Shown here piece by piece: positions 15,142-42,455 of a stretch of DNA of 54,532 nt. The notes beneath the pieces were generated by a model. That model was not told the DNA's origin. It saw only the letters and a list, made by a program, of their open reading frames with translations, and did no database searches. Origin of the DNA: Holophagaceae bacterium (GTDB lineage Bacteria > Acidobacteriota > Holophagae > Holophagales > Holophagaceae); the NCBI GenBank assembly GCA_025357545.1, contig JANXPB010000236.1:1-54532 (forward strand), read 5' to 3'. Position 1 is the stretch's first letter; every line of letters begins with the position of its first letter. A program made the translations under genes and the position numbers.

Positions 15142-15726
15142 ATGAACTGCGCAGCGATTCCAAAATTGACGCTTGCCCTCATGACTAGGGGCTTCGGCCT
15201 GGGGGCTGCAGCCACTGAATTCCAGAGTCGTCCAACCAGAAAAGCAATTCCGCCGACACCGCAAGCGTCAGCCAATGACACGATCGACCTGCAGCACGAT
15301 CCGCCGGTGGTTCTTGAGGAACAGCATCAGGTTCTGGCGATGGCCTTTCAGCAGAATCTGGCGATCTTCACCGGGACTCTGCTGGGATCCCTGGTCGATG
15401 CTGGTTCTGCCAACATCGAGTTCGTTCGCGCCGTGGTGGTGGAGCTGAGGCGGAGTTTCGACCAACTGGAGCTGCACCATCGGGCGCACAAGTTGACGAT
15501 GAGCCATGGCACCTCCATCAGGCTGAGCGGAATGATGCAGCCGATGGATGCGCACCTGGCCGCGTTGAACACCCTGCTGGTGGAGCTGGAGCGGGAAGTT
15601 CAGCTGTCCGTGCCCAGGGTGAAGCAGATTGCCACCCTGGCAGGCGCCATGGACGCGCACCTCGAGGCCATGACGCAAACGCAACACGCCGCCCTGGGAA
15701 GCCGGACGGTCGGCGCTCGATTTTGA
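15142..15726 (+). CDS. Hypothetical helical protein beside the encapsulin locus
   Basis: A 194-residue ORF of unknown family with GGAG eight bases before its ATG. The first 45 residues are low-complexity and poorly constrained; from about residue 55 the sequence is strongly helical with amphipathic heptads (VEFVRAVVVELRR-like and LAALNTLLVELEREV) and scattered His and Met. This could form a four-helix bundle, but I see no complete hemerythrin or ferritin motif. The extreme C-terminus, GSRTVGARF, loosely resembles encapsulin targeting peptides of the LTVGSLR type, which is weak evidence. It ends 25 bases before the SOD gene and is probably cotranscribed. The true start might be internal. Confidence 0.5.
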   Translation: MNCAAIPKLTLALMTRGFGLGAAATEFQSRPTRKAIPPTPQASANDTIDLQHDPPVVLEEQHQVLAMAFQQNLAIFTGTLLGSLVDAGSANIEFVRAVVVELRRSFDQLELHHRAHKLTMSHGTSIRLSGMMQPMDAHLAALNTLLVELEREVQLSVPRVKQIATLAGAMDAHLEAMTQTQHAALGSRTVGARF

Positions 15727-15751: not shown

Positions 15752-16357
15752 ATGGCTTACGATCCCAAGAACTACGATCACCTGAAGGGCGGCGCAGTGA
15801 AAGGCTTCAGCGATAGCCAGCTGGACCTGCACTTCACCCTCTATATGGGCTACGTGGCCAAGCTCAACGAGATCGAGGAAAAGCTGGCGGTCGCGAGCAA
15901 CGCCAAGCCCAACTATTCCTTCAACGAGTACAGCGAACTGAAGCGCCGAGAGGCCGTGGCCTTCAATGGCTCCTTTCTGCATGAGATCTACTTTGAGAAC
16001 CTTGGTGCCGACACGTCCATCAGCCCCGAATTGCAGCAAGCCCTGGACGCCCAGGGCGGCAAAGATAAAATCCTGGCGGATCTCAAGGCCACCGCCCTGT
16101 GCGGCCCCGGCTGGGCGCTTCTCACCCGCAACCGCCGGGATGGTCGGCTGCATACCTACTTCGTGGCCGAACATCACTTGGGCCTGCCTATCGAACAGGA
16201 TCTGCTGGTGGTGCTGGACAGCTGGGAGCATGCCTTCATGGTGGACTACGGCATCAGGCGCCCCGACTACATCAACGCCTTCATGGCCAACATCAAGTGG
16301 AGCGAAGTGTCGGCGCGCTTTGCGGATGTGAGCAGGAGCGCCAGGCGAGGCGGCTAG
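15752..16357 (+). CDS. Fe/Mn-family superoxide dismutase
   Basis: A 201-residue protein of the iron/manganese superoxide dismutase fold, converting superoxide to hydrogen peroxide and oxygen. The four metal ligands can be placed as His27 (DLHFTLYMGYVAKLN), His77 (GSFLHEIYFENLG), Asp156 and His160 (VLDSWEHAFMVDYG). The C-terminal RPDYINAFMANIKWSEVSARF is a family signature. The sequence is divergent from typical SodA/SodB (no HHxxY repeat). A GAGGGAAA ribosome site precedes the ATG. Only two bases separate its stop from the EncFtn start, so the two are one transcription unit. No obvious signal peptide or encapsulin-targeting tail is present. Confidence 0.88.
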   Translation: MAYDPKNYDHLKGGAVKGFSDSQLDLHFTLYMGYVAKLNEIEEKLAVASNAKPNYSFNEYSELKRREAVAFNGSFLHEIYFENLGADTSISPELQQALDAQGGKDKILADLKATALCGPGWALLTRNRRDGRLHTYFVAEHHLGLPIEQDLLVVLDSWEHAFMVDYGIRRPDYINAFMANIKWSEVSARFADVSRSARRGG

Positions 16358-16359
16358 CA

Positions 16360-16698
16360 ATGAGCAGCGCCTTGATCGAGGCTGGTCTTTCAAAGGAAGT
16401 TCACAACATCCACCGGGCCCTTGCCAGCCTGCAGGAGGAACTGGGAGCCATCGACTATTACCACCAGCGGGTGGATGTATCGGGCGACGAAGCCCTGAAG
16501 GCGGTCCTGGCCCATAACCGGGACGATGAGATGGAGCACGCGATGATGCTGTTGGAATGGTTGCGCCGCACCCTGCCGGAGTTCGACGTCCAGATGCGGA
16601 AGGTCCTGTTCACCACCGGCGACCTCGTCGCCCTCGCCAAGGGGACCAAGCACCCCGCCGCAATGGGCAAAGGGCTGGGATTGGGGAACCTGAAATGA
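16360..16698 (+). CDS. Encapsulated ferritin-like protein (EncFtn)
   Basis: A 112-residue two-helix ferritin-like protein that, in characterised relatives, forms an annular decamer inside an encapsulin shell and oxidises ferrous iron. The core motifs are EELGAIDYYHQRVD and LAHNRDDEMEHAMMLLEWLRR. Glu27, Glu57 and His60 align with the ferroxidase ligands of the Rhodospirillum rubrum protein as I recall it, whereas its outer-site Glu and Trp appear as Gly29 and Tyr33. The final residues GLGLGNLK resemble known encapsulation signals (LGIGSLK-like) and follow a flexible linker. It lies between the SOD gene and the encapsulin gene. Confidence 0.92.
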   Translation: MSSALIEAGLSKEVHNIHRALASLQEELGAIDYYHQRVDVSGDEALKAVLAHNRDDEMEHAMMLLEWLRRTLPEFDVQMRKVLFTTGDLVALAKGTKHPAAMGKGLGLGNLK

Positions 16699-16726: not shown

Positions 16727-17541
16727 ATGACGGACCTGCTCAGGCGTGAAATGCCGCCCATCGCGGATGAGGCTTGGAAGCACATCGACCTGCAGAGTTC
16801 CCGCATCCTGAAGGGCAACCTCTCCGGCCGGAAACTGGTGGACTTCTGCGGGTCCTTCGGTGGGCAGTTCGCCGCCGTGAATCTCGGGAAACTGGACGTC
16901 GGCCCCGCAGGACCGGTGGAGGGAGTGGTTGGGGCCTGCACAAAGTCCTCCCCCTCGTGGAGATCCGCGTGCCCTTCACCCTGCGGATCTGGGAATTGGA
17001 TGATGTTGAGCGGGGAGCCAAGGCCCCTGACCTGGTGGCCTTGACGGAAGCCGCGCGCAAGGTGGCGACCTTCGAGGAGACGGCCATCTACCGGGGCTTC
17101 GACGGAGCCGGCATCCAGGGCCTGCTTTCAGCCTCCAGCCATCCACCGGTGCCGCTGAGTCCCGACCGAAGCAGACTTACCGAGTCCGTGGAGCAGGCCC
17201 TGCTGGCCATCCAGGAGGCGAAGATCGGCGGCCCTTTCGAATTGATGCTGGGCACGGAACCCTACAAGTGGCTGATGCTGGGAGAACCGGATGCCTACCC
17301 GCTGCGCCACCGGATCGAGGCTTTGGTCACGGGAGGTATCCACTGGAGCCCTGTGCTGGAGGGCGGCGCCGTCCTCTCGCGGCGGGGTGGGGACTTCGAG
17401 CTGACCGTCGGCCAGGATCTGTCCATCGGCTACAAGATCCACACCGCCCAGGATGTGGAGTTGTATTAAGCAGAATCCTTCACGTTCTGGGTCCTGGAAA
17501 CTGCGGCGGCCGTGGCATTGAAACTGCAGCCTTCCAAATGA
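16727..17541 (+). pseudogene. Encapsulin shell protein, frameshifted and with internal stop
   Basis: HK97-fold family 1 encapsulin coding region broken twice. Residues from ATG 16727 (LLRREMPPIADEAWKHID) match encapsulin N-termini until about 16928-16930; the next part (WGLHKVLPLVEIRVPFT) continues one frame over, consistent with loss of one base. That frame runs through GGDFELTVGQDLSIGY to TAA at 17467-17469, after which the same frame still encodes the expected final strand (AESFTFWVLE) before TGA at 17539-17541. Restored, the protein would be about 271 residues, normal for the family. A perfect TGAGCGCTCA palindrome lies in the gap after EncFtn. Two lesions of different kinds make a single read error unlikely. 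Confidence 0.9.
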
Positions 17542-41041: not shown

Positions 41042-41128
41042 GCAATTCCGCTGGACGGCGGCGGGGCCCGGAACGGTCTCTGACGTTGACGCCAACCACT
41101 CTGGCTGGCATCCTGGAAATTCACTCAT

Positions 41129-41214
41129 GCCCGCGTGGTGAAACTGGTAGACACGCCATCTTGAGGTGGTGGTGGCCAAAAGCCGTAGCAGTTCGAGTCT
41201 GCTCGCGGGCACCA
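41129..41214 (+). tRNA. tRNA-Leu (anticodon GAG)
   Basis: A complete class II tRNA. The acceptor stem GCCCGCG pairs with CGCGGGC, the anticodon arm CCATC-TTGAGGT-GGTGG gives anticodon GAG, a long variable arm (GGCCAAAAGCC) is present as expected for Leu, and the T-arm contains GTTCGAGTC. The 3' end ACCA is genomically encoded. It reads CUC and CUU leucine codons, which is appropriate to this GC-rich genome. It is followed by a terminator. Confidence 0.97.
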
Positions 41215-41221
41215 AACAAAA

Positions 41222-41243
41222 GAGCGCCGCAGGGCGCTCTTTT
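41222..41243 (+). terminator. Rho-independent terminator after tRNA-Leu
   Basis: GAGCGCC, a four-base loop (gcag), and GGCGCTC form a perfect 7-bp GC-rich stem followed by TTTT. It starts 7 bases after the tRNA and would end the secG/tRNA transcript, insulating mutY. Confidence 0.9.
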
Positions 41244-41342
41244 CAGGTATGAGATATGAGGTTTGAAGGACAAGGAACGAGGCCCGAGCTGCGAGGAAAT
41301 CCCATCACTTGGCCCACGATTTGGCCTGAATCGTCTCAGCTC

Positions 41343-42455
41343 ATGGCACCCCTCGGCCCCTGGTTCGAAGCCCACCGCCGGGCCATGCCTTGGCGCCACG
41401 AAGATCTGGACGCGCCCCATCCCGAGCCTTATGCGGTCCTGGTCTCGGAGATGATGCTCCAGCAAACCCAGGTGGCGACGGTCATCCCTTACTTTGAGCG
41501 CTGGATGGTGCGCTTCCCCGACGCCGCGTCCCTCGCCCAGGCGGCGCCGGATGCCGTGCACAAGGCCTGGGAAGGCTTGGGCTACTATCGGCGGGCGCGC
41601 CACCTGCAGGCTGCGGCACAGGCCATTGCGGAACACGGTTGGCCTACGGATCTGGCAGGCCTGATGCAGTTGCCGGGACTCGGCTCCTACACCGGAGCCG
41701 CGGTGGCTTCCATCGCCTTTCAATGGCCCGAACCAGCCTTGGATGGCAACGCCTTTCGCGTGCTGGCGAGGCTACTGGCCCTCGACGGGGATCCCAAATG
41801 CCAAGCCCCGGAGCTGCGGATCTGGCTAAGGGCGGCGCTGTCCGCCTTGGGTCCGTCACGCATCACCCAGGGCCTCATGGAACTGGGTGCGACGGTCTGC
41901 ACACCGACCCCGCGTTGCCCTTTGTGTCCACTCGCCGGTGCCTGTGAAGCCCGGCGCTTGGGTGCCACCGCGCGTATCCCACCCACGGTCACCCGCCAGA
42001 AGCCTTTGGAAACGGATATCTGGCTATTGGCCATCGCAGCCAAGGACTGCTGGCTGCTGCGTCCCCCCGCCGGAACGGGACTGCTCGCGGGCCTCTGGAC
42101 TTGGCCTGCGTTAAAGAACTTGGCCCAGGCAGTTGGCAGCGATCTCGCCGCGGATCCTCAGATTCTTTTTTCGGCCATCGAGGTGCGCGCCTGGACCGGG
42201 TGGACCCAGGTCTACACCCATCGCCGGGAGCGCGTGGAGCCATGGCGTCTGCGCTTCCCCGATACCGTCGGAGCGCCGGCGGCGCCCCTTGGCTTTCGTT
42301 GGGTCGAAACCGCAGACCTGCCCCTGCTGCCCTTCGGCAAACGCGACCAGCGTTTGCGGGACCTCCTGCAAACTCCCGCCGATGCCCCCCTTCTAGGCCC
42401 CGATCCGATCGAGGTATGGCGCCGGCTCAACAGCGATGCAGGCCCTGCGGCGTAA
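41343..42455 (+). CDS. mutY: A/G-specific adenine glycosylase MutY
   Basis: A roughly 370-residue base-excision glycosylase removing adenine opposite 8-oxoguanine. The N-terminal motif SEMMLQQTQV holds the catalytic Glu, the helix-hairpin-helix reads LPGLGSYTGAAVAS, and ALDGNAFRVLARLL holds the catalytic Asp. The [4Fe-4S] loop is CTPTPRCPLCPLAGAC, giving C-x5-C-x2-C-x5-C, one residue shorter at the first interval than the usual x6. The C-terminal NUDIX-like domain recognises 8-oxoG. I favour ATG 41343 by homology; ATG 41256 is the ORF-track start, and neither has a good ribosome site. The last 29 bases overlap the convergent GHMP kinase gene. Confidence 0.92.
   Translation: MAPLGPWFEAHRRAMPWRHEDLDAPHPEPYAVLVSEMMLQQTQVATVIPYFERWMVRFPDAASLAQAAPDAVHKAWEGLGYYRRARHLQAAAQAIAEHGWPTDLAGLMQLPGLGSYTGAAVASIAFQWPEPALDGNAFRVLARLLALDGDPKCQAPELRIWLRAALSALGPSRITQGLMELGATVCTPTPRCPLCPLAGACEARRLGATARIPPTVTRQKPLETDIWLLAIAAKDCWLLRPPAGTGLLAGLWTWPALKNLAQAVGSDLAADPQILFSAIEVRAWTGWTQVYTHRRERVEPWRLRFPDTVGAPAAPLGFRWVETADLPLLPFGKRDQRLRDLLQTPADAPLLGPDPIEVWRRLNSDAGPAA

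What the first reader, a model, noticed from the sequence alone, without database searches (positions are those of the whole stretch)
16727..17541. Encapsulin shell gene broken twice while cargo genes stay open
Reading frame 2 from 16727 encodes the expected encapsulin N-terminus, then the homologous sequence jumps to the next frame at about 16928-16930 (one base missing), and later meets TAA at 17467-17469 with the final encapsulin strand still recognisable beyond it. Two different kinds of lesion argue for real inactivation. SOD and EncFtn are intact, so their cargo may be shell-free, or the shell may be supplied by another locus.
Basis: partly seen in the sequence, partly recalled or inferred. 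Interest (0 to 1): 0.85.

Follow-up and report, generated by a model that had tools for sequence, protein, structure and literature searches.

The report
Recently broken encapsulin shell gene
In a bacterium of the Holophagaceae, the gene for a protein nanocage that stores iron appears to have been disabled recently by two mutations, while the iron-oxidising enzyme normally housed in the cage is intact and still carries its address tag for it; this is ordinary gene decay caught at an early, informative stage.

Summary
The frame at 16727 encodes 66 residues of a family 1 encapsulin, is one base short at 16925-16927 relative to intact relatives, and the homologous frame then meets TAA at 17467-17469, 23 residues before its natural end. 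It is the only encapsulin found in this draft genome (95.6% complete); two same-genus and 13 other family genomes have open copies. Among about 44 conserved genes (45 kb) on the contig, this alone has an internal frameshift or stop, which argues against a noisy assembly; raw reads were not available. dN/dS on the window branch (0.126) is not significantly above background (0.09) and far below 1, so if dead, the gene died recently. EncFtn is intact and keeps its shell-targeting tail, but has Gly where all 17 distinct family homologues have Glu at a proposed metal-entry site. SOD is a conserved operon neighbour without a targeting tail, so it is not shown to be cargo. In the phylum, EncFtn without a shell normally lacks the tail; only this genome and one other (G037, on a suspect palindromic contig) keep the tail without a shell. 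Best reading: recent shell pseudogene leaving an orphaned, soluble ferroxidase. Interesting but ordinary.

The parts
15752..16357 (+). Fe/Mn superoxide dismutase, open frame of 201 aa, conserved operon neighbour; no encapsulin targeting tail
   Evidence: Pfam Sod_Fe_C E 2.3e-17; adjacent to EncFtn in 13 of 17 family genomes that have EncFtn, one of them internally deleted; C-termini compared
16360..16698 (+). EncFtn, encapsulated-ferritin-type ferroxidase, open frame of 112 aa
   Evidence: PF22277 E 2.4e-34; PDB EncFtn matches without gaps
16444..16446 (+). EncFtn codon 29, Gly in the window, Glu in all 17 distinct family homologues; equivalent of Glu34 of R. rubrum EncFtn
   Evidence: role of Glu31/Glu34 from PMC5012862
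16672..16695 (+). EncFtn C-terminal targeting tail GLGLGNLK, retained
   Evidence: comparison with family homologues
16727..16924 (+). Encapsulin, first part, 66 native codons
   Evidence: Linocin_M18 E 1.1e-13; codon mapping
16925..16927 (+). Frameshift site: one base fewer than in relatives
   Evidence: nucleotide alignment with G001 and G004
16927..17466 (+). Encapsulin, second part, in the next frame
   Evidence: Linocin_M18 E 2.7e-53
17467..17469 (+). Premature TAA stop
17470..17541 (+). Last 23 codons of the homologous encapsulin frame plus its natural stop, beyond the premature stop

Best explanation
A family 1 encapsulin shell gene, last gene of a conserved Holophagaceae SOD-EncFtn-encapsulin operon, was recently inactivated by a one-base deletion at codon 67 and a nonsense mutation near the C-terminus. 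No shell is made. EncFtn keeps its targeting tail; without a shell it most likely acts as a soluble ferroxidase that oxidises Fe(II) but cannot store the mineral, with Dps-like proteins encoded elsewhere covering iron detoxification. Shown: the two lesions in the assembly, their absence from relatives, no second family 1 shell gene found, an intact EncFtn with its tail. Inferred: that the lesions are in the organism and not the assembly, that no shell forms, that EncFtn is expressed and active, and the substitution by Dps.
For: Both lesions read and aligned. Only family 1 encapsulin in the genome. Open copies in G001, G004 and 13 other family genomes, two of them running off a contig end. Encapsulin is the only gene with an internal frameshift or stop among about 44 genes (44.8 kb) compared with relatives; two random errors would fall in one gene about 3% of the time. 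Codon model: dN/dS on the window branch 0.126, background 0.09, and 1 is rejected at P 6e-14; the likelihood profile puts the unconstrained part of the branch at about 4% (0-13%) of dS 0.505, or about 0.02 neutral changes per site, which by my estimate is enough for about one stop and one or two indels in 813 bp. Six residues invariant in the other family copies are changed in the window, none in G001 or G004. R. rubrum EncFtn is a ferroxidase that cannot mineralise iron outside the shell (PMC5012862). Two Dps-like genes on C73 and C174.
Against: No raw reads and no second strain. The rise in dN/dS is not significant (P 0.21), so decay beyond the two lesions is not demonstrated. Assembly errors can mimic pseudogenes (PMC11017572). 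Changed invariant residues also reach 6-7 in two members of another genus with open genes.
Confidence: 0.75

Rival explanations
1. Assembly or sequencing artefact: one or both lesions are errors in a draft genome and the organism has a working encapsulin.
For: Draft genome of 239 contigs; dN/dS shows no significant relaxation, as expected for a live gene; the frameshift is in a short G-rich stretch; spurious pseudogenes from assembly are documented (PMC11017572).
Against: No other internal lesion in about 45 kb of compared genes; two lesions of different kinds in one gene; P about 0.03 for two random errors sharing a gene.
Confidence: 0.17
2. The gene is expressed by recoding: a ribosomal frameshift joins the frames and the stop is read through or tolerated.
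For: The two frames overlap around 16912-17044, and selection was strong until recently.
Against: No recognisable slippery heptamer at the site by eye; relatives encode the protein in one frame, so no ancestral recoding; TAA would have to be handled as well.
Confidence: 0.03
3. The shell is supplied by another locus, in the unassembled part of the genome or from a different shell family.
For: The EncFtn tail is retained; the genome is 95.6% complete.
Against: No other Linocin_M18 match in the genome. A SrpI-like (family 2) search found nothing, but its controls were also empty, so that search is inconclusive. No family genome was seen with two intact encapsulin loci.
Confidence: 0.04

Closest known systems
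Family 1 encapsulin shells (Haliangium ochraceum 7odw, Thermotoga maritima 3dkt)
   Same: The open same-genus orthologue (G004) aligns over residues 3-266 with 7odw, E 1e-70, and matches NCBIfam encap_f1 at 273.9 bits, cut-off 100.
   Different: The window copy is split between two frames and stops 23 residues early.
EncFtn / FLP-TP cargo (Rhodospirillum rubrum Rru_A0973, H. ochraceum Hoch_3836)
   Same: Same family; residues equivalent to Glu32, Tyr39, Glu62 and His65 are present and the C-terminal targeting tail is kept.
   Different: Gly at the Glu34 equivalent; no intact shell partner.
s-FLP / 'Non-EncFtn' proteins without a targeting tail (Nitrosomonas europaea NE0167, 3k6c)
   Same: EncFtn-type protein in a genome without an intact shell; best PDB sequence match is 3k6c.
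   Different: Those lack the tail; here it is retained.
Encapsulin remnants elsewhere in Acidobacteriota (G203, G342, G153, G210; second locus of G069; deletion in G037)
   Same: Broken, truncated or missing shell genes.
   Different: Different lesions; the first four are in another family and had no EncFtn match in the same survey.

Membership tests
Family 1 encapsulin (origin of the gene) | Linocin_M18 / encap_f1 homology | tested here: met
   Both parts match Linocin_M18; the open orthologue passes encap_f1.
Family 1 encapsulin (working gene) | One open frame of full length | tested here: not met
   Frameshift at 16925-16927 and TAA at 17467-17469.
Family 1 encapsulin (working gene) | Self-assembly into an icosahedral shell | not testable with these tools
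   Needs expression.
EncFtn (FLP-TP) | EncFtn domain with ferroxidase-centre residues | tested here: met
   PF22277 E 2.4e-34; Glu27, Tyr34, Glu57, His60 align with 32, 39, 62, 65. It scores under the TIGR04535 cut-off (114.6 vs 125), as do five of six family homologues tested.
EncFtn (FLP-TP) | C-terminal encapsulin targeting peptide | tested here: met
   GLGLGNLK, like family homologues with open shells.
EncFtn (FLP-TP) | Glu31/Glu34 metal site | tested here: not met
   Glu26 (31) kept, residue 29 (34) is Gly. Asp or Gln occur there in a few other Acidobacteriota, so this is not an absolute requirement.
SOD as encapsulin cargo | Targeting peptide | tested here: not met
   No LGLG/LGIG-type tail in any of the 13 operon SODs.
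Pseudogene | Disabling lesions absent from orthologues | tested here: met
Pseudogene | dN/dS raised towards 1 on the branch | tested here: inconclusive
   0.126 against 0.09, P 0.21; fits only a recent loss.
Pseudogene | Lesions confirmed in reads or in a second strain | not testable with these tools
   No reads and no same-species assembly were held.

The most novel reading that the evidence does not exclude
The window catches the passage from shell-housed to shell-free EncFtn: the shell has just been lost, the tail is still present, and the Glu-to-Gly change at the proposed entry site is an adaptation of the ferroxidase to working in the open cytoplasm.
Probability: 0.1. Interest if true: 0.6.

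Novelty: new member of a known kind. Interest (0 to 1): 0.35.

Why it matters
R. rubrum EncFtn needs its shell to store iron (PMC5012862). A natural genome that has lost the shell but kept the tailed enzyme, beside close relatives with open shell genes, would be a natural knockout: it could show what the shell contributes in vivo and how the tail-less, shell-free EncFtn proteins of the same phylum arise.

Tried and rejected
Apparent extra lesions on the contig were checked and dismissed as antisense shadow ORFs, overlapping gene starts, or a match near 41080-41240 upstream of an open adenine-glycosylase-like frame at 41256-42455. G037's two EncFtn copies are arms of a perfect 17.3-kb palindrome and are not counted as a duplication; its missing encapsulin may share that assembly problem. 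Recoding was considered and rejected as the main reading: no slippery site by eye and relatives use one frame. A family 2 (SrpI-like) search of the genome was empty, but so were its controls, so it shows nothing. No paper on encapsulin pseudogenes, encapsulin gene loss or Geothrix encapsulins turned up in the held library. The paper on EncFtn entry-site mutants is not held, so no effect of the Glu-to-Gly change is claimed. Promoter- and terminator-like sites were at chance level.

Full report
Observation. The sequence at 16727-17541 was read and aligned with the two same-genus open encapsulin genes. The first frame gives 66 native codons; one base is then missing relative to both relatives, and the homologous frame resumes at 16927. 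That frame meets TAA at 17467-17469; homology continues for 23 codons to the natural stop at 17539-17541. Pfam Linocin_M18 matches the two parts separately.

Genome and relatives. The window is the whole of contig C163 of a draft genome (239 contigs, 95.6% complete). Named relatives of the locus are Holophagaceae and Geothrix. No other family 1 encapsulin was found in the genome. In the same genus, G001 and G004 have open frames (G001 runs off its contig end), and G002 and G003 have neither encapsulin nor EncFtn. Of 77 family genomes, 17 have EncFtn. Encapsulin follows EncFtn in 16 of these (broken in the window, absent in G037), and SOD precedes it in 13 (internally deleted in G012; absent in G001, G004, G069 and G070). 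The window thus carries the usual operon with its last gene broken. G000, G001 and G004 have another SOD elsewhere; the window's operon SOD falls outside that well-supported second clade.

Artefact or real. Genes of five relatives were placed on the window. Of about 44 genes (44.8 kb), only encapsulin has an internal frameshift or stop; the other flags were shadow ORFs, overlapping starts or non-coding matches. If two errors had fallen at random, they would share one gene about 3% of the time. This favours real lesions but does not prove them; reads are needed, since assembly errors are a known source of false pseudogenes (PMC11017572).

Age of the loss. A codon model on seven sequences gives dN/dS 0.126 on the window branch against 0.09 elsewhere (P 0.21) and rejects 1 (P 6e-14). 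The likelihood profile allows 0-13% of the branch without constraint, best 4%; with branch dS 0.505 this is about 0.02 neutral changes per site. One stop and one indel in 813 bp fit such an age (my estimate). A live gene with two assembly errors would give the same dN/dS, so this test bears on the age, not on reality. Six residues invariant in the other family copies are changed in the window and none in G001 or G004; two members of another genus with open genes reach 6 and 7.

Cargo. EncFtn keeps its ferroxidase residues and its GLGLGNLK tail, but residue 29 is Gly where all 17 distinct family homologues have Glu. By alignment with the solved R. rubrum protein this is Glu34, which with Glu31 binds a metal at a proposed entry site (PMC5012862); a later review proposes another entry site (PMC11202242), and Asp or Gln occur at the position in a few other Acidobacteriota. 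EncFtn on the window branch is under purifying selection (dN/dS 0.16), as is SOD (0.06). SOD has no targeting tail in any operon, so its status as cargo is unsupported.

Wider pattern. Among 396 Acidobacteriota genomes of at least 90% completeness, 29 have a strong EncFtn match (E below 1e-25). Fourteen of these have an open encapsulin gene, and all 14 EncFtn proteins carry a tail; 13 have no encapsulin, and all 13 EncFtn proteins lack a tail. Only the window and G037 combine a tail with no open shell gene. Tail-less EncFtn are a described group (s-FLP, PMC11202242; Non-EncFtn, PMC5012862). In G037 the shell gene is cleanly absent between EncFtn and the following gene, but the contig is a perfect palindrome and may be misassembled. 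Encapsulin remnants also occur in four genomes of another family of the phylum, so shell loss recurs.

Mechanism. R. rubrum EncFtn alone oxidises iron but cannot mineralise it and must be inside the shell for storage (PMC5012862). The window organism therefore most likely has a soluble ferroxidase without shell storage, with Dps-like proteins as a probable substitute. These steps are inference. The retained tail fits a recent loss, since shell-free EncFtn elsewhere in the phylum has none.

Verdict. Observation confirmed; inactivation likely (0.75); SOD as cargo and a second shell locus not supported. A new case of a known kind (gene decay leaving orphaned cargo), of moderate interest as a natural shell knockout.

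Noticed in passing
L113, L114, L115, L116 (G203, G342, G153, G210): Encapsulin remnants with frameshifts or large deletions in a second Acidobacteriota family, in assemblies listed as 99% complete.
   Followed up: partly
L058 (G069 contig C93): Second EncFtn locus in which a frameshift removes the targeting tail and the encapsulin frame ends after 41 aa, 32 of them homologous. The genome has 8% contamination, so it may be foreign.
   Followed up: partly
L047 (G037 contig C40): The stretch is a perfect 17.3-kb inverted repeat; SOD and EncFtn are open, encapsulin is absent, and the following hydrolase has an internal deletion.
   Followed up: partly
L052 4907-5128 (G012): Operon SOD reduced to 75 aa by an internal deletion while EncFtn and encapsulin are open.
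   Followed up: no
L124 (G000 contig C73): Second SOD of the window's genome stands in an apparent oxidative-stress cluster with rubrerythrin-like, Dps-like and catalase-like frames (named by eye, except the ferritin-family match).
   Followed up: partly
L105 (G097): Tail-less EncFtn with an N-terminal hydrophobic segment that resembles a signal or membrane anchor.
   Followed up: no
window 15142-15726: 194-aa frame without a Pfam or NCBIfam match upstream of SOD; a 34-41% identical homologue stands upstream of EncFtn in G004.
   Followed up: no
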